Source: Gammaproteobacteria bacterium (GTDB lineage Bacteria > Pseudomonadota > Gammaproteobacteria > Eutrophobiales > Eutrophobiaceae). From it: a stretch of DNA of 64,000 nt. The notes below the pieces were generated by a model that saw only the letters and a program-made list of their open reading frames with translations, searched no databases and was not told where the DNA came from. The position numbers and the translations under genes were made by a program. The stretch covers positions 1-64,000 of the forward strand of contig JAPPLI010000002.1 in assembly GCA_028819495.1 (NCBI GenBank), written 5' to 3'. Numbering within the stretch: position 1 is the first letter of the stretch; the number at the start of each line of letters is the position of its first letter. Below, piece by piece: positions 3,737 through 48,519 of the stretch.

Positions 3737-3742
3737 AATTCA

Positions 3743-3807
3743 CATGGATGCACAGGATGGACAGGATATATGAAAAAGAATCATCCTGTATATCCTGTCC
3801 ATCCATG
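3743..3807. repeat. Inverted repeat (CATGGATG..ACAGGAT family) between convergent genes
   Basis: The left arm starts CATGGATGCACAGGATG and the right arm is the complement of CATGGATGGACAGGATATA. The same ACAGGAT motif family forms the large inverted repeat at 43033-43206. It lies between the convergent gatB and acyl-CoA synthetase genes and could act as a bidirectional terminator. Confidence 0.8.
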
Positions 3808-3823
3808 TAAATAACAAACCCGG

Positions 3824-18861: not shown

Positions 18862-18919
18862 AGTTAGCGATTTTACCGGAAAAACGCTAACTATACAAGC
18901 ATATTTCCGAAAAAATGCC

Positions 18920-19015
18920 GGGGTCAGAGTAAAATCGCCACCGATCGTGCTATCGGCAATGTCCTTCAGGATTTTACTCTGACCCCACCCATCTCATGGG
19001 TTTTACTCTGACCCC
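18920..19015. repeat. Palindromic element, GGGGTCAGAGTAAAA family (copy 1)
   Basis: GGGGTCAGAGTAAAATC at 18920-18936 is answered by its exact complement at 18970-18986, and a second right arm (TTTTACTCTGACCCC) ends at 19015. The outer TTTAGCGGGAA nearby is also seen in the 40421-40531 element. It looks like the REP/RAYT-associated class of hairpins. The 18862-19200 gap otherwise holds no gene I can support. Confidence 0.85.
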
Positions 19016-19200
19016 GACATTTAGCGGGAACTGCTGGCTGTTTGCCGCTTCAGTGAAGTTTAAGTCGCGGCCGCGTGCGCGCCGCAAAGAAGTTTGCGAG
19101 GCACAAATATAATGACAACCTCGTGTGTAATCCGCCTGGCCGGCATTTTGATGCTACCATTCACGTTTCCGACATTAACACAGTCAGGCAGATTGAACCA

Positions 19201-20174: not shown

Positions 20175-20263
20175 GGGGTCAGAGTAAAATCGCCGAGAAC
20201 GTCGGCAATGGCAGGACCGGTGGTGATTTTACTCTGACCCCACCCATCTGACCGGGGTCAGAG
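20175..20263. repeat. Palindromic element, GGGGTCAGAGTAAAA family (copy 2)
   Basis: Left arm 20175-20191 and right arm 20225-20241 are exact complements (17 bases), with an extra GGGGTCAGAG at 20254-20263. It lies between the convergent kinase and permease genes and may end transcription from both sides. Confidence 0.85.
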
Positions 20264-21244: not shown

Positions 21245-22789
21245 TCAGTGCAGGCGGCCGGTGCTCTTTCCGGAGGTATATTCACTGAATGCCGCTGCCA
21301 GGATGGCGTTATAATCCCATTCGTCCCGGTCAAACATTTTGACCGGTTTGCGATTGGAGAAAACCAGGATGCGATGGCAGAGTTTCATCAGTTCCTCGAT
21401 TTCACTGGAGACGATGACCAGTGTCCTGCCCCGGGCGGCCAGCTCCGTGAAAAGTTCATGGAGGAAGTGTTTTGTGGGTATATCAACCCCGCGCGTGGGT
21501 TCGTTCAGAAGAAAAATATCGGCGCCTTTGTGCAGCCAGCGGCTCACCAGGACTTTTTGCTGGTTGCCGCCGCTCAGCAGCTCGATGTGCTGGTCTGCGT
21601 CCACGCGTTTTACCGATAATTGATTCAACTGCTCCTCCGTTGCAAGGTCTTCGTGGGAGGACCGGATAATGCCGAACTTGCCGGCATGCCTTTCCAAGCC
21701 CGGAAGAGTCAGGTTCAGGCGGATGGACTGGCCGGCGAATATGCCCTGCCGCTTTCGGTCTTCAGGCAAAAACCCGATGCCCAGGTCTATTGCCTGGCGC
21801 GGGTTATGCAACGTAATCCGTTCATTACCGAGATAACGCGTGACCGTGCCGCTCTCCGCCCGTTTCAGCTTGAAAATCGTTTCCAGCAACTCCGACTGCC
21901 CGGAACCGGCCAGACCGCCAATACCGATGATTTCACCTGCAAAACAGTCGAAGGAAACGGGATGGGGAAGTTGCCTGGATTCCAGCCGATCAATCCCCAG
22001 GGTTATCCTGCCGCGGCTGACGGAACCGGAGGGGCTCGCGGCGTTATCCCTGCTTTCCCGTCCTGACATCAGGCGGATCATTTCATCCATTGTGACGGTT
22101 CCGGCCGGAGAGCTGTCCACCACCTGTCCATCCCGTAATATGGAAATGGTGTCCGAGACGTCAAGCACGTCCTTCAGCCTGTGGCTGATGTAAATTACGG
22201 ATGTTCCCCCGGCGGCAAGATCCCGTATGATCTCGTGCAGCCGTTGCGCCTGCGGTTCAGTCAATGCTGCGGTGGGTTCATCCAGGATCAAAAGCCGGCT
22301 GTCGAAAGCCAGCGCCTTCGCCAGTTCAGTAAGCTGGCGTTGCGCCAGGGGGATCCGGTTGACAGGTGTATCCGGGTCAAGAATTTCCATGCCGACCAGC
22401 TTCATCATCTTCCCCGCCTTGTCCAGCAATTCCGGGTAGCGGATGACAGCCTTCCGGTCAGGCAGGCGTCGCAGAAAAATATTCTCGGCAACAGACAGGG
22501 TGTCGATGAGACTGAGTTCCTGGGCCGCCAGGGTGATGCCGCGGCGCAGGGCGTCCCCGGCATTCCCGGGCGTATAGCTTGCGCCATCCAGAAAGAGTTC
22601 GCCCCGGTCCCAGGGAAGTAACCCGGAGAGGATATTCATCAAGGTCGACTTGCCGGCCCCGTTTTCCCCGATCAACCCGTGGACTTCTCCCGGTTTGACG
22701 GTCATGTTGACACCGGACAATACGGGTGTCGAAAAGGATTTATACAGCTCGTTTACACTGAGGCGGGAAGCCGGGAGTTCTGGGGACAC
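21245..22789 (-). CDS. Ribose-type ABC transporter ATPase (two nucleotide-binding domains)
   Basis: This 514-residue RbsA-like protein has two ABC domains. Domain 1 has a proper Walker A (GENGAGKST), an unusual signature (LAQRQLTELAKAL) and Walker B LLILDEPTAAL. Domain 2 has a degenerate Walker A (GLAGSGQSE), a good LSGGNQQKV signature and LLNEPTRGVD with Asn where Asp is usual. One working site is common in this family. The GTG start and the first residues MSPELP lie inside one arm of an inverted repeat (22774-22801), so the native start may have been replaced. Confidence 0.88.
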   Translation of the reverse strand: MSPELPASRLSVNELYKSFSTPVLSGVNMTVKPGEVHGLIGENGAGKSTLMNILSGLLPWDRGELFLDGASYTPGNAGDALRRGITLAAQELSLIDTLSVAENIFLRRLPDRKAVIRYPELLDKAGKMMKLVGMEILDPDTPVNRIPLAQRQLTELAKALAFDSRLLILDEPTAALTEPQAQRLHEIIRDLAAGGTSVIYISHRLKDVLDVSDTISILRDGQVVDSSPAGTVTMDEMIRLMSGRESRDNAASPSGSVSRGRITLGIDRLESRQLPHPVSFDCFAGEIIGIGGLAGSGQSELLETIFKLKRAESGTVTRYLGNERITLHNPRQAIDLGIGFLPEDRKRQGIFAGQSIRLNLTLPGLERHAGKFGIIRSSHEDLATEEQLNQLSVKRVDADQHIELLSGGNQQKVLVSRWLHKGADIFLLNEPTRGVDIPTKHFLHELFTELAARGRTLVIVSSEIEELMKLCHRILVFSNRKPVKMFDRDEWDYNAILAAAFSEYTSGKSTGRLH

Positions 22790-22859
22790 AATACTTAATT
22801 CTGAAAGTGGAGAATTGTGAATGCCGGGTCGGAATTAAGTACTGTGTCCCCAGAACTCC
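22774..22859. repeat. Inverted repeat with 28-bp arms, one mismatch
   Basis: Arms 22774-22801 and 22832-22859 (GGAGTTCTGGGGACACA then TACTTAATTC) pair with one mismatch around a 30-base loop. The element separates the TrpB2 gene end from the ABC ATPase start and overlaps the latter's first codons. Confidence 0.92.
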
Positions 22860-22879
22860 TGTCTCGCCGCCGGGATTTA

Positions 22880-24281: not shown

Positions 24282-24359
24282 CCCGCGCAGGCGGGAATCC
24301 AGTGGACAACAAAACTCCTTGTAATGAATGTTTGCTTACTGGATTCCCGCTTTCGCGGG
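24282..24359. repeat. Inverted repeat, CCCGCG..GCGGGAATCCAGT family
   Basis: CCCGCGCAGGCGGGAATCC (arm 24282-24303) faces the complement of CCCGCGAAAGCGGGAATCC (24338-24359), 22-base arms with three mismatches. It lies between TetR and TrpB2 genes on the same strand and may end TetR transcription. Confidence 0.85.
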
Positions 24360-39226: not shown

Positions 39227-40399
39227 ATGATAAATTCCGATTATCCCGGCCTGAATTTTAACCTAGGCGAGACCGCGGAAATGCTGCGCGAATCAGTGCA
39301 TGACTTTGCCCAAGCGGAAATCGCGCCGTTGGCAGCCGAAATTGACAGGACCAATGAATTTCCCGCGCATCTCTGGCGCAAATGTGGCGACATGGGATTA
39401 TTGGGCATTACCGTTGAGGAAGACTACGGCGGCGCAGGTATGGGGTACCTGGAGCACGTGGTGGCTATGGAAGAGATCAGCCGGGCTTCCGCTTCCGTGG
39501 GCCTGTCTTACGGCGCCCATTCCAACCTGTGTGTCAACCAGATACGGCGCAACGGCGATGAGCGGCAGAAACGTAAATACCTGCCGGGCTTGATCAGCGG
39601 CGAGCATCCCGGCGCGCTGGCCATGTCCGAAACGGGCGCTGGTTCCGACGTGGTGGGTATGCGCCTGCGCGCGGATAAACAGGGCGCTAAATACATTCTC
39701 AACGGCAGCAAGATGTGGATAACCAATGGGCCCGATGCGCATACCCTGGTTGTCTACGCAAAGACAGACCCTGCCGCAGGTCCGCGGGGCATCACCGCGT
39801 TCATCATAGAAAACGGCTTCACGGGTTTCTCCACGGCGCAGAAGCTGGACAAACTGGGAATGCGGGGCTCCAACACCTGTGAACTGGTGTTCGAGGACTG
39901 TGAGGTGCCGGCAGAAAATGTACTGGGCAAGGTCAACGAAGGAGTCAAGGTGCTGATGAGCGGCCTGGATTACGAGAGAGCCGTGCTCGCAGGAGGACCC
40001 CTGGGCATCATGCAGGCCTGCATGGACGTGGTCATCCCTTATATCCACGAACGCAAGCAGTTCGATCGGCCAATAGGCGAGTTCCAGCTCATGCAGGGAA
40101 AGATCGCCGACATGTACACCACCATGAATGCGTGCCGCGCCTACGTTTATGCGGTTGCCATGGCCTGCGACCGCGGGGAGACGGCCCGCAAGGATGCCGC
40201 GGGCGCCATCCTCTATGCCGCAGAGAAGGCCACCTGGATGGCGCTGGAGGCTATCCAGGCCCTGGGCGGTAATGGCTACATCAACGAATTCCCTGCCGGA
40301 CGCCTGCTGCGCGATGCGAAACTGTACGAGATCGGCGCCGGCACCAGCGAAATCCGGCGCATGCTCATCGGCCGGGAACTTTTCGAGGAATCGGCCTGA
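39227..40399 (+). CDS. liuA: Isovaleryl-CoA dehydrogenase
   Basis: This 390-residue acyl-CoA dehydrogenase oxidises isovaleryl-CoA to 3-methylcrotonyl-CoA in leucine catabolism. The catalytic base is Glu250 in [14 protein letters not shown], the position specific to isovaleryl-CoA dehydrogenases, and [23 protein letters not shown] and [14 protein letters not shown] are present. No ribosome site or promoter is evident in the 22-base AT-rich gap after the AIPR gene, so its expression may depend on readthrough from the defence operon or a promoter inside it. Confidence 0.95.
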
Positions 40400-40420
40400 T
40401 GACTATCCATAGATCAGCAG

Positions 40421-40531
40421 TTCCCGCTAAATTCCGGGGTCAGAGTAAAAACCCATCGGAATATGCAGTTTTATCGTACATCACCATGGGTTTTTACTCT
40501 GACCCCACCATCTGACCGAGGTTAGCGGGAA
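40421..40531. repeat. Palindromic element, GGGGTCAGAGTAAAA family (copy 3, complete)
   Basis: This is the most complete copy. Outer arms TTCCCGCTAA (40421-40430) and TTAGCGGGAA (40522-40531) enclose inner 21-base arms, 40436-40456 and 40486-40506 (GGGGTCAGAGTAAAAACCC...). It fills most of the liuA-liuB gap. Confidence 0.9.
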
Positions 40532-40545
40532 CCACTGATAATTTC

Positions 40546-42144
40546 ATGACTAGTATAAAATCAGCGATGAATCCTCATTCCGAAGACTTCAAGGCGAACG
40601 CCGCTGCCATGCGCTCACTGGTCGATGATCTGAACGACAAGGTCGGTATCGTAGCGAGGGGCGGGGATGAAAGAGCCCGCAAGAAACACCAGTCACGCGG
40701 AAAACTGTTACCCCGTGACCGGATAAAACACCTGTGTGACCCGGGTTCGCCCTTCCTGGAACTGTCCCAGCTTGCCGCTTGGGACATGTATGACAATGCC
40801 GTGCCGGCCGCGGGGGTCATCACCGGCATCGGCCGCGTGGCAGGGCGCGAATGCATCATTGTCGCCAACGATGCCACCGTCAAGGGTGGCACCTATTACC
40901 CGCTCACGGTGAAGAAACACTTGCGCGCCCAGGAAATTGCCGGGATGAACCATTTGCCGTGTATCTACCTGGTGGATTCCGGCGGCGCGTTTCTGCCGAA
41001 ACAGGACGAGGTGTTCCCGGACCGGGACCACTTCGGTCGCATCTTCTACAACCAGGCCAACCTGTCGGCCAGGGGCATCCCGCAGCTCGCCGTAGTGATG
41101 GGTTCCTGCACTGCCGGCGGCGCCTATGTGCCGGCCATGTCCGACGAGAGCATCATAGTCAAAAACCAGGGAACGATATTTCTCGGCGGCCCGCCCCTGG
41201 TCAAGGCGGCGACCGGCGAGGTGGTCAGCGCGGAAGACCTGGGCGGCGCGGACGTGCATTCGCGCCGGTCGGGCGTTACGGACCACTACGCGCTGAACGA
41301 CCGGCATGCCCTGGAGCTCGCCAGGCGTTCCGTGAGCCACTTCAACATGCCGGAACGTGCGGTTCTTCAGACCCGGGAGACGGTTGAACCGGAATATGAC
41401 ATCGAAGAGATCGACGGCGTGATCCCCCCGGATACGCGCAAACCCTTCGAGGTGCGGGAGGTCATTGCCCGGCTCGTGGACGGCAGCGAATTTGCCGAGT
41501 TCAAGGCCTTGTACGGCACCACCCTGGTATGCGGGTTTGCCCGTATTTACGGCTACCCGGTGGGCATTATCGCCAATAACGGCATCCTGTTTTCCGAATC
41601 GGCCCTGAAGGGGACGCATTTCATCGAGTTATGCAGCCAGAGGCGGATACCCCTGGTATTTCTCCAGAACATCACCGGTTTTATGGTGGGACAAAAGTAC
41701 GAGGCCGGCGGCATAGCAAAGGACGGCGCCAAGATGGTGACGGCCGTCGCTACTACCTCCGTGCCCAAGTTCACCGTGATCATCGGCGGCAGTTTCGGCG
41801 CCGGCAACTACGGCATGTGCGGGCGCGCCTACAACCCGCGCCTCCTGTGGACCTGGCCCAATGCCCGGATCTCGGTCATGGGCGGCGAACAGGCGGCCAA
41901 TGTGCTGGCGCAGGTGAAGCTGGACAACCTGAAAGGCGACTGGCCGCAGGCGGAACAGGAATCCTTCAAGCAGGAAATCCGGCAACAATACGAAACCCAG
42001 GGGCATCCGTATTACGCCAGCGCCCGCCTGTGGGACGACGGTATCATCGCGCCGCGGGACACACGCCGGGTCCTGGGCCTGGGCATTTCCGCATCCCTCA
42101 ACGCGCCGCTGGAAGACACCCGTTTCGGGTTATTCCGCATGTAA
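40546..42144 (+). CDS. liuB: Methylcrotonoyl-CoA carboxylase beta (carboxyltransferase) subunit
   Basis: This 532-residue biotin-dependent carboxyltransferase transfers CO2 from carboxybiotin to 3-methylcrotonyl-CoA. Typical segments are [84 protein letters not shown] and [16 protein letters not shown]. The long family form with the ATG at 40546 is used; 40567 (MNPHSED) is an alternative. Second gene of the liu operon; its alpha partner is liuD. Confidence 0.95.
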
Positions 42145-42163
42145 CGGGACATCCGGAATACTC

Positions 42164-42204
42164 GGGGTCAGAGTAAGTGTCGTCAGAATTTTTACTCTGA
42201 CCCC
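42164..42204. repeat. Palindromic element, GGGGTCAGAGTA family (copy 4, short)
   Basis: GGGGTCAGAGTA (42164-42175) and TACTCTGACCCC (42193-42204) are exact complements around a 17-base loop, in the liuB-liuC gap. Confidence 0.9.
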
Positions 42205-42238
42205 AAATATCAACCAGCGTGAGAATAACGAAAAAGCC

Positions 42239-43027
42239 ATGCCATACACATTTATTACTTATAAAACCGATCATCGGAACGTAACCACGATTACCCTGAA
42301 CCGTCCCGATAAACACAATGCCTTTAACGAGGATTTTATTGCGGAATTGAGCAATGTCCTGGACGACATCCGCCGGGACCGGGACTGCAAGCTGATGGTT
42401 TTGCGCTCCAACGGCAAAAATTTCTCCGCAGGCGCGGACCTGGACTGGATGAAACGCATGGCCGGTTACACGCGCGCAGAGAACGTCCGGGACGCCAATG
42501 CCCTGGCGGAATTGCTCTACAGGCTTAATTTCCTTCCCGTGCCCACCATCGCCAGGGTACAGGGCGCGGCCATGGGCGGGGGCTGCGGCCTGGTGGCGTG
42601 CTGCGACGTGGCCCTGGCGGCGGACAATGCCGTGTTTGCCTTCAGTGAAGTGAAGCTCGGCCTGATCCCGGCCACCATCAGCCCATACGTGATACGCGCA
42701 ATCGGGGAGAAACAGGCGCGCCGCTATTTCCAGACCGCGGAACGCTTCGGCGCCGTACAGGCCAGGGAACTGGGCCTGGTTTCCGAGGTCATGGAAGAAT
42801 CAGGGCTGGATGATGCCTTGGGAAAAACCGTCGATCTGATATTGTCCAACAGTTCCGAAGCGGTAAAAGCGGCGAAACAACTGGCGTTTGACGTGGCAGG
42901 CCGGCCGGTAACCCCGGAACTCCTGCAACAGACCAGCGAGAGCATCGCCGACATACGCGCATCCGAGGAGGGCAAGGAGGGCTTGTCCGCGTTCCTGGAA
43001 AAGCGTAAACCGGCGTGGCTGAAGTGA
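42239..43027 (+). CDS. liuC: Methylglutaconyl-CoA hydratase
   Basis: This 262-residue enoyl-CoA hydratase/crotonase-fold enzyme would hydrate 3-methylglutaconyl-CoA to HMG-CoA. Oxyanion-hole segments NGKNFSAGADLDWM and VQGAAMGGGCGLVACCD, plus FAFSEVKLGLIPATISPYV, fit this subgroup. The assignment from general hydratase to methylglutaconyl-CoA hydratase rests on its place between liuB and liuD. Confidence 0.9.
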   Translation: MPYTFITYKTDHRNVTTITLNRPDKHNAFNEDFIAELSNVLDDIRRDRDCKLMVLRSNGKNFSAGADLDWMKRMAGYTRAENVRDANALAELLYRLNFLPVPTIARVQGAAMGGGCGLVACCDVALAADNAVFAFSEVKLGLIPATISPYVIRAIGEKQARRYFQTAERFGAVQARELGLVSEVMEESGLDDALGKTVDLILSNSSEAVKAAKQLAFDVAGRPVTPELLQQTSESIADIRASEEGKEGLSAFLEKRKPAWLK

Positions 43028-43032
43028 TCAAA

Positions 43033-43206
43033 ATTGAACATGGATGTACAGGATATACAGGATAATTATGATTTCTTTTACAACACAGTCGATGGTTCCG
43101 TTGATTAAGGACATTCGTATGCTTTGCGAATAAGATCGTATTCCATGTTTTTCACAAGACATTTTTATTCTTCCTATCCTGTATATCCTGTACATCCATG
43201 TTCAAT
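43033..43206. repeat. Large inverted repeat with perfect 32-bp arms; right arm contains the liuD start
   Basis: Arms 43033-43064 and 43175-43206 (ATTGAACATGGATGTACAGG then ATATACAGGATA) are exact complements around a 110-base loop without a gene. The right arm includes the liuD ATG and its next two codons. The element is related to the 3743-3807 repeat. Confidence 0.95.
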
Positions 43207-45222
43207 AAAATACTGATCGCCAATCGAGGGGAGATAGCCTGCCGCATTATCCATACGGCAAAACGCCTGGGTGTCGGGACGGTCGCGGTGTATTCCGAGG
43301 CGGACGTCAATGCGCGCCATGTGAGTCTGGCCGATGAAGCCGTGGCCATCGGGCCGGCGCCGGCCCGGGACAGTTACCTGGCCGCGGAGAAACTGATCGC
43401 CGCGGCTGAACGCACCGGGGCAGAGGCAATACATCCCGGTTACGGCTTCCTCTCGGAGAATGCCGGTTTTGCCGAAGCCTGCGGGGACGCCGGGGTCACC
43501 TTCATCGGTCCGTCGTCCCGGGCAATCGAGGCCATGGGATCCAAAAGCGCGGCCAAAACCATTATGCGGCAGGCCGGCATCCCCCTTGTCCCGGGTTACC
43601 ACGGTGACAACCAGGACGAGATGTTCCTCCTGGGCGAGGCGGAAAAAATCGGTTTTCCGGTCATGCTCAAGGCATCGGCGGGCGGCGGCGGCAGGGGCAT
43701 GCGGGCAGTGAACGGCGCGGCGGAATTCAGTGAAGCGCTGCGTTCGGCAAAGCGGGAGGCGCTGGGCGCGTTCAATGACGACAGGATGCTTCTGGAAAAA
43801 TACCTGGAACAGCCCCGGCACATCGAGATCCAGATCTTCTGCGATCAACATGGCAATGCGGTACACCTGTTCGAACGAGACTGCTCGATCCAGCGGCGCC
43901 ATCAAAAGGTTCTGGAAGAAGCCCCGGCGCCCGGCATGACGGATGAAACGCGCGGCGCAATGGGCGACGCCGCGATCAGCGCAGCCCGGGCCATCGATTA
44001 CACCGGGGCCGGCACGGTTGAATTCATTGTCGATACGGACGGCAGGTTCTATTTCATGGAGATGAACACCCGCCTGCAGGTCGAGCACCCGGTGACCGAA
44101 TTTATCACCGGCCAGGACCTGGTCGAATGGCAGTTGCGGGTCGCCGCGGGCGAACGCCTGCCGGCAAGCCAGGACCAGCTTGCCATCGACGGCCACGCCC
44201 TTGAGGCGCGTATCTACGCAGAGGACCCGGATAACGGTTTCCTGCCGTCCACCGGCAGCCTGGGTCACCTGCGATTCCCGGCGGAAACCCCACAGGTGCG
44301 GGTGGATACCGGTGTGCGGCAGGGGGACACCATCTCCGTTTATTATGATCCGCTGATCGCAAAACTCATCGTCCGGGCCGGCGATCGCAGGAACTGCCTA
44401 CGGCGCATGCTCGAGGCTTTGAGACAAATACAGGTGGCGGGGGTCACAACCAATATCGATTTTCTGACCTCGGTGATTTCCCATAAAGCGTTCCATGCCG
44501 CGGATTTCGACACCGGTTTTATTGACCGTTACCGGGCCGAACTGGTACCGGATAAGGCGCCGGCAAGCCCCGATATCCTTGCCCTGGCCGCGCTGTACCA
44601 GACGCTGTGGCGCGACTCCCGGTCCTGCCGGGAAGCCGCAACCTCGGACGATCCGACGTCACCCTGGTGGGCAACCGACAACTGGCGGCCCAACCTTGTG
44701 GAGGAAGAACATTTCAGTTTCCACGACGGCACCGGGGAATATGAAGTGGGAATGGCCATTGCAGGCAACAGGCGTGAGCATTCGGAGCGGGATTACGTCA
44801 TCCGTACCGGCGGGCAGGTCATGAGCGCATCTGGCCGGCTTGAAGCGGACGGCAGACTGGCGGCAATACTGGACGGAATGCAACGGCGTATCGACGTAGC
44901 CGAAGACCATAACCACCTGGTAATCTTCGAAGCGGGCAATACCTGCCGGTTGAAGCGGTTATCGGATGGCAGCCATTCCACGGAAGAGGAAGCGGCCGGC
45001 AACCTCATCTCCCCCATGCCCGGCACGATCATCGAAGTGATAGCAAGCGAAGGGCAACAGGTCAGCAAAGGCGACACGCTGCTGGTACTGGAGGCGATGA
45101 AGATTGAACACACCATAGTCGCGCCCCACGATGGCACGGTGCAGGCCCTGCACTACCGGGCAGGGGACATGGTGGAGGAGGGGGTGGAGTTGCTGGTGCT
45201 GGCAGAAATTAGCTCGATATAA
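43198..45222 (+). CDS. liuD: Methylcrotonoyl-CoA carboxylase alpha (biotin carboxylase/biotin carrier) subunit
   Basis: This 674-residue protein has an N-terminal biotin carboxylase domain (ILIANRGEIACRI; ATP-grasp glycine loop KASAGGGGRGM; EMNTRLQVEHPVTE) and a C-terminal biotinyl domain with biotin lysine Lys635 in VLEAMKIEH. It works with liuB. The ATG lies inside the right arm of a 32-bp perfect inverted repeat, so the start could be masked in an mRNA hairpin. HMG-CoA lyase (liuE) and a LiuR regulator are not in the window. Confidence 0.95.
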   Translation: MFNKILIANRGEIACRIIHTAKRLGVGTVAVYSEADVNARHVSLADEAVAIGPAPARDSYLAAEKLIAAAERTGAEAIHPGYGFLSENAGFAEACGDAGVTFIGPSSRAIEAMGSKSAAKTIMRQAGIPLVPGYHGDNQDEMFLLGEAEKIGFPVMLKASAGGGGRGMRAVNGAAEFSEALRSAKREALGAFNDDRMLLEKYLEQPRHIEIQIFCDQHGNAVHLFERDCSIQRRHQKVLEEAPAPGMTDETRGAMGDAAISAARAIDYTGAGTVEFIVDTDGRFYFMEMNTRLQVEHPVTEFITGQDLVEWQLRVAAGERLPASQDQLAIDGHALEARIYAEDPDNGFLPSTGSLGHLRFPAETPQVRVDTGVRQGDTISVYYDPLIAKLIVRAGDRRNCLRRMLEALRQIQVAGVTTNIDFLTSVISHKAFHAADFDTGFIDRYRAELVPDKAPASPDILALAALYQTLWRDSRSCREAATSDDPTSPWWATDNWRPNLVEEEHFSFHDGTGEYEVGMAIAGNRREHSERDYVIRTGGQVMSASGRLEADGRLAAILDGMQRRIDVAEDHNHLVIFEAGNTCRLKRLSDGSHSTEEEAAGNLISPMPGTIIEVIASEGQQVSKGDTLLVLEAMKIEHTIVAPHDGTVQALHYRAGDMVEEGVELLVLAEISSI

Positions 45223-45275
45223 TCGACTTAATTAAGATTATAAGAATTTCTTATCATCCCGCGTACCTGCGACTC

Positions 45276-45375
45276 GTCACTCATTGCATCCTTCCTGGGA
45301 TGCAACCCTGCGGGCGGCTATCGCCGTGCAAATCGGCTATCCTGCCGATTTGTCCCGCGCAGGCGGGAATCCAGT
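45276..45375. repeat. 100-bp dispersed repeat, copy 1
   Basis: The reverse complement closely matches 61921-62020. It ends with the same GCGGGAATCCAGT motif as the 24282 element. It occupies most of the gap between the convergent liuD and hsdR genes. Confidence 0.82.
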
Positions 45376-45396
45376 CAAACAACTTTCCTTATAACT

Positions 45397-48519
<3,123 letters not shown>

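What the first reader, a model, noticed from the sequence alone, without database searches (positions are those of the whole stretch)
43033..43206. liuD start codon inside a perfect 32-bp inverted repeat
The right arm contains ATG TTC AAT of liuD, and the left arm is its exact complement just after liuC. The mRNA could hide the liuD start in a long hairpin, separating its expression from liuB although the two subunits must be balanced. A protein-coding start mirrored in the repeat also suggests the arms were copied from one another.
Basis: partly seen in the sequence, partly recalled or inferred. Interest (0 to 1): 0.55.

Follow-up and report, generated by a model that had tools for sequence, protein, structure and literature searches.

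The report
Hairpin mobile element donates start codon
The mirrored sequence in front of liuD is one copy of a family of short DNA hairpins scattered through this genome whose full-length relatives, found across many phyla, carry a tiny nuclease-like gene between the same kind of ends and appear to move as a unit, and here the end of the hairpin supplies the first codon of a host gene.

Summary
The 32-bp perfect inverted repeat is real, but it is not private to liuD. Its arms belong to a dispersed family: 77 copies in the genome against 0 for the reversed control, mostly head-to-head pairs around short, mostly unrelated loops. The arm is WTTM-ACATGGAT-NN-ACAGGAT-NN-ACAGGAT; variation sits in the 2-nt spacers, and the two arms of one element are no more alike than arms of different elements, so they were not copied from each other. 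In congeners the liuC-liuD junction is empty (G369, G371) or holds another hairpin (G373). The genome's only GxxExxY gene (PF13366/TIGR04256) lies between the same arms, its first codons inside the left arm. GxxExxY genes elsewhere are flanked by inverted arms in 44 of 49 class loci and 49 of 78 loci from many phyla, against 7 of 776 control windows. Arm motif follows protein clade, and two pairs of copies match exactly arm to arm with unrelated flanks. Best reading: a MITE-like, non-autonomous member of an apparently undescribed mobile element built on a minimal PD-(D/E)XK protein. That the nuclease does the moving is inferred.

The parts
43033..43064 (+). left terminal arm of the hairpin element (family consensus WTTM-ACATGGAT-NN-ACAGGAT-NN-ACAGGAT)
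43065..43174 (.). 110-nt loop; no match listed elsewhere in the own genome or in the 30 genomes searched beyond the arms
43175..43206 (-). right terminal arm, exact reverse complement of the left arm
43198..43200 (+). liuD start codon, the ATG of the outward-reading CATG in the right arm
42239..43027 (+). liuC-like enoyl-CoA hydratase; stop 5 nt before the element
43198..45222 (+). liuD-like biotin carboxylase subunit (methylcrotonyl-CoA carboxylase alpha)
3742..3808 (.). second element of the same family in the window (arms 3742-3767 and 3783-3808, 15-nt loop)

Best explanation
The inverted repeat is a short non-autonomous (MITE-like) copy of a mobile element. The full element is about 450-475 bp: a single gene for a GxxExxY protein (130 or so residues, PD-(D/E)XK nuclease fold) between terminal inverted arms, each made of about three heptamers at 9-10 bp spacing. 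The protein most likely reads the heptamers, cuts or resolves the hairpin ends, and moves its own element and gene-less hairpins with the same arms. Shown by sequence: the family, the gene inside the same arms, arm-to-arm bounded copies at different sites, arm motif following protein clade. Inferred: that GxxExxY is the moving enzyme, that gene-less hairpins move in trans, and the cutting step. Here such a hairpin inserted between liuC and liuD, and its outer TTMACATG end now supplies the liuD ATG. The mRNA hairpin would pair that ATG; a ribosome ending liuC would melt the foot of the stem and free it, so coupling to liuC is my preferred guess for expression (untested).
For: 77 arm copies, 0 control; 34 head-to-head pairs and 12 single arms read out. 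Empty junction in G369 and G371, and in family member G380; a different hairpin (CACAGAG type, with an ACAGGAT arm remnant in it) in G373. More empty sites for other copies, e.g. L055:1991, L057:7701, L067 in G369. Only PF13366 hit of the genome is at C60:4126-4467, inside these arms, ORF MDVQDKQD... beginning in the left arm. Same in congener G370; 89% identity over 454 bp exactly arm to arm, flanks unrelated. G277 has two copies, 90.5% over 464 bp ending at the arms, flanks unrelated. IR score >=15: 44 of 49 class loci, 49 of 78 loci of a set spanning 17 phyla, against 7 of 776 same-locus windows. Heptamer pair near the gene: 109 of 132 GxxExxY loci, 1 of 30 S23-IVP loci, 60 of 788 control windows. 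Arm label changes on the protein tree 19 against shuffled mean 37.4; three-state 3 against 17.4. CACAGAG pairs in 26 of 62 gene-bearing genomes and 28 of 307 others, Fisher p 3e-9. Fold: SSO0001 (recalled as a Cas4) Z 10.0, Holliday junction resolvases about 7; invariant E34, D74, E84, near-invariant K86.
Against: No target-site duplication was found (best z 1.6), so a transposition product is not proven at base level. The window loop resembles neither the GxxExxY gene nor other loops by eye or by the genome search, so descent by internal deletion is not shown. Ten of 24 genomes with 6 or more CACAGAG pairs have no detected gene. Arm-protein correlation is also expected if the gene is only a passenger of arms moved by another enzyme. 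The protein's activity is untested and no solved relative exists by sequence. The gene-bearing contig C60 ends 3 nt past the right arm, and the assembly is a draft of 221 contigs, 5.95% contamination.
Confidence: 0.75

Rival explanations
1. The GxxExxY gene is a passenger or domesticated cargo; another enzyme or host recombination copies the arms.
For: 10 of 24 genomes with many CACAGAG pairs lack a detected gene; most ACAGGAT copies carry no gene; no TSD.
Against: Only one of the 34 pairs read holds a long loop, and its gene is GxxExxY; arm motif follows protein clade, also between paralogs of one genome (G277, G084); nuclease fold. The genome's one Y1 transposase lies among GGGGTCAGAG hairpins, with no ACAGGAT pair in the 3,327 bp held.
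Confidence: 0.2
2. The hairpin is a fixed RNA regulatory element (attenuator, processing site or start-codon mask) evolved for the liu operon.
For: Very stable stem holding the start codon.
Against: Absent at the same junction in G369, G371 and G380; the same arms lie at some 45 other places; no Rfam match; no terminator-like site.
Confidence: 0.05
3. Arms arose locally, one copied from the other by fold-back synthesis at the liuD start.
For: Perfect 32/32 match, including the outer ATTGA/TCAAT.
Against: Both arms match the family consensus; within-element identity is no higher than between elements, p 0.88, outer 5 nt p 0.11.
Confidence: 0.03

Closest known systems
MITEs (miniature inverted-repeat transposable elements)
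   Same: Short, gene-less, terminal inverted repeats, many dispersed copies, a larger gene-bearing element with the same ends in the genome
   Different: Partner is a PD-(D/E)XK protein rather than an annotated transposase; arms are tandem heptamers at 9-10 bp; no target-site duplication found
REP/REPIN sequences with RAYT (Y1) transposase
   Same: Dispersed hairpins with a single-copy small partner gene flanked by the same hairpins; this genome has such a pair, GGGGTCAGAG hairpins around its one Y1 gene
   Different: Partner here is GxxExxY, not Y1; no ACAGGAT pair in the Y1 locus
23S rRNA intervening-sequence elements (S23-IVP, PF05635)
   Same: Small single-gene unit between inverted tandem-unit arms, 20 of 30 loci with IR score >=15
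   Different: Four-helix protein family (recalled), 7-bp period or its double in all 40 arms of those 20 loci, heptamer-pair pattern in 1 of 30
GxxExxY protein family (TIGR04256 / PF13366)
   Same: The gene in the full element is a member: 145.3 and 145.2 bits, cut-offs 35 and 22
   Different: No paper found in the searched library links the family to mobile elements or repeats

Membership tests
MITE | terminal inverted repeats, under about 600 bp, no full ORF of a transposase | tested here: met
   window element 174 bp with perfect arms; loops read
MITE | same ends as a gene-bearing element of the genome | tested here: met
   C60 GxxExxY element
MITE | target-site duplication | tested here: inconclusive
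   no direct-repeat signal, best z 1.6; species too diverged at junctions for base-exact empty sites
REP/RAYT | Y1 (RAYT) transposase partner with the same hairpins | tested here: not met
   one Y1_Tnp gene, flanked by GGGGTCAGAG, no ACAGGAT pair
GxxExxY (TIGR04256) | score above curated cut-off, for the gene of the full element | tested here: met
   145.3 bits, cut-off 35
PD-(D/E)XK nucleases | core fold and D...ExK residues | tested here: met
   invariant D74, E84, 90%-plus K86 in 73 sequences; model pLDDT 92.7; SSO0001 Z 10.0, rmsd 3.0, 98 aligned
PD-(D/E)XK nucleases | nuclease activity | not testable with these tools
   needs purified protein
S23-IVP elements | PF05635 gene and its arms | tested here: not met
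   no PF05635 hit in the own genome; 9-bp against 7-bp period
known RNA families (Rfam 15) | match at gathering score | tested here: not met
   0 matches in 40000-46000

The most novel reading that the evidence does not exclude
GxxExxY elements are an undescribed class of bacterial and probably archaeal mobile element, run by one minimal Cas4/RecB-like nuclease that reads heptamer arrays at its hairpin ends. Their gene-less offspring would be a source of the CACAGAG-, CGCAAAG-, CACGAAA-, CGCAGAT- and ACAGGAT-type repeats, and their ends can serve as ready-made stop-start junctions (TTAACATG) for host genes.
Probability: 0.6. Interest if true: 0.9.

Novelty: new variant of a known kind. Interest (0 to 1): 0.8.

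Why it matters
GxxExxY proteins are curated in two databases under names that state no role, and no paper of the searched library gives one. If they move the hairpins around them, one small nuclease accounts for dispersed repeats seen here with the gene in loci of many phyla, and offers a minimal system to study hairpin recognition and transposition by a PD-(D/E)XK fold. The start-codon donation (liuD, and 8 further genes with homology support) shows how such insertions can be tolerated at tight gene junctions.

Tried and rejected
Rejected: RNA regulator origin (Rfam 0 matches; empty junctions). RAYT as partner. Arm copying. Excess of in-frame start donation: ends that face a gene start fall 14/5/13 over frames 0/1/2, so the nine donated ATGs may be chance plus tolerance. 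TSD search negative. Phage or plasmid origin: a 24-nt arm core has 0 exact matches in viral contigs; the own GxxExxY protein has relatives in 0 of 50,697 phage records and 8 of 72,556 plasmid records. No relative with a solved structure by sequence. Literature: six 16-mers of arm type were found only in two unrelated papers, listing seen only; ACCACAGAG with inverted repeat 0; MITE and IVS searches gave listings and abstract starts only, nothing linking GxxExxY. For PMC8934634 and PMC12085832 one passage each was seen.

Rows dropped: L140, L162 (too little flank); L076, L235, L236; L074 (same locus as L066), L052:4082, L065, L069, L073; L074, L052:4082 and L043; L121, L169, L196 (IR without heptamers), and L196's label; four genomes with weak PF13366 hits (G037, G177, G231, G284) from the gene-positive set. 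L085 and L128 are the same record, L082 and L098 are orthologs, and L078/L231 share flanks; these were not removed from counts. In one search three loci (L082, L089, L098) were mis-framed; one search replaces it.

Full report
Observation. The inverted repeat is as described: arms 43033-43064 and 43175-43206, 32 of 32, loop 110 nt. The upstream ORF (enoyl-CoA hydratase, liuC-like) stops at 43027 and the downstream one (biotin carboxylase with a methylcrotonyl-CoA carboxylase BT domain, liuD-like) starts at 43198 in the right arm.

The arms are a dispersed family. The 26-nt arm with up to 3 mismatches has 77 matches in the 4.97-Mb genome, none for the reversed control; two of them form a second element in the window at 3742-3808. 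Reading the copies out gave 34 head-to-head pairs and 12 single arms. Loops range from about 13 to 150 nt apart from one of 383; most are unrelated, a few share sequence by eye (L052:21 with L065; L055:1991 with L066). In 29 pairs the units ACATGGAT, ACAGGAT, ACAGGAT are nearly invariant while the 2-nt spacers vary, and the two arms of an element are no more alike than arms of different elements (2.34 against 2.19 mismatches, p 0.88).

Insertion. In G369 (same genus) only a few bases separate liuC from a TTG-started liuD; G371 and family member G380 are also without an element; G373 has a CACAGAG-type hairpin at that place with an ACAGGAT arm remnant in it, and its own ATG outside. A query of joined flanks from 12 other copies found G369 without a hairpin at L055:1991, L057:7701, L058, L064 and L067, other hairpin families at L045, L047 and L054, a decayed arm at L062, and one intact shared element, L064, in G373; at the remaining sites the loci held did not span both flanks or were not informative. 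Since G371, G373 and G380 start liuD with ATG, the element may have replaced a native ATG rather than a TTG.

The full element. The one long loop (L052:4082-4516) holds the only PF13366/TIGR04256 gene of the genome. Its ORF opens with M-D-V-Q-D-K-Q-D read from the left arm. Congener G370 has the same gene between the same arms at another place: 89% identity over 454 bp, arm to arm, with unrelated flanks. In G277 two copies agree over 464 bp, again ending at the arms; one has a stop codon.

Generality. 66 of 369 genomes of the class have PF13366. An automatic alignment of the two flanks scores 15 or more at 44 of 49 class loci, and at 49 of 78 loci of a separate set of 80 from 17 phyla, against 7 of 776 windows elsewhere in the same loci and 1 of 390 shuffles. 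Among loci with arms the best repeat period is 8, 9 or 10 in 162 of 180 arms. Heptamer pairs lie near 109 of 132 genes; near S23-IVP genes, 1 of 30, whose own arms have a 7-bp period; in control windows 60 of 788. In the archaeal locus (Methanothrix, L173) the heptamer pair, not the IR score, was met.

Link of protein and arm. On a tree of 131 domains, arm-encoded N-termini trimmed, six arm labels on 86 rows need 19 changes, shuffled mean 37.4, lowest 31 of 300; three merged states need 3, shuffled mean 17.4, lowest 15. The tree is poorly resolved (114 columns, 70 of 127 inner branches open), and co-inheritance of arm and gene as one unit would give the same signal. Among the 369 genomes, CACAGAG pairs occur in 26 of 62 with the gene and 28 of 307 without.

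Protein. An AlphaFold2 model of one member (73-row alignment, pLDDT 92.7) matches PD-(D/E)XK proteins: SSO0001 (recalled as a Cas4) E 2.5e-4 by Foldseek and Z 10.0 by VIA-align, with Hjc resolvases near 7, a level that can also be a common arrangement. E34, D74 and E84 are invariant; K86, Q98 and Y102 are in 90% or more.

Host genes. Both ends read TTAACATG or close to it, with a TAA inward and an ATG outward. Of 75 ends, 39 face a gene end, 32 a gene start, 4 neither, by a simple ORF rule. In nine, the arm's ATG is the first codon of a long ORF with a family match: liuD, hemH, a molybdopterin oxidoreductase, lolA (signal peptide seemingly shortened), two MFS proteins, a MATE transporter, moeA and gluQRS. 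Frames are 14/5/13, so no clear excess over chance.

Expression at liuD. The whole hairpin pairs the AUG. With 43033-43042 left out, as if covered by a ribosome at the liuC stop, the AUG is unpaired in the best and the centroid fold. This supports only that coupling is possible.

Verdict. The repeat is most likely a non-autonomous hairpin of a GxxExxY mobile element. That it is a mobile unit is well supported; that GxxExxY is the mover is the likeliest reading and needs the bench.

Noticed in passing
window 42158-42210, 40436-40506, 18913-19022, 20175-20241: Another hairpin family, GGGGTCAGAGTAA..TTACTCTGACCCC; the genome's one Y1 transposase gene (L280) is flanked by it, so these look like REP sequences of a RAYT.
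   Followed up: partly
L250-L279: S23-IVP (PF05635) genes are also flanked by inverted tandem arms, with a 7-bp period (20 of 30 loci with IR score >=15); whether they lie in rRNA genes was not checked. A second, analogous small-gene element.
   Followed up: partly
L222 and L108: In G373 hairpins of one family sit inside or around remnants of another at the same junction, as if junctions with hairpins are re-used.
   Followed up: partly
L199: G373 has a truncated GxxExxY gene between CGCAGAT-type arms, the type of hairpin found at orthologous junctions in G369 and G373.
   Followed up: partly
window 22762-22871 and 24282-24359: Two further long hairpins (GGGGACACAATACTTAATTC.. and CCCGCGCAGGCGGGAATCC..) of unknown family.
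   Followed up: no
L066 and L074: The same locus appears on two contigs of the draft genome (C160 and C216, opposite strands), so the assembly holds strain variants, a duplication or contamination.
   Followed up: no
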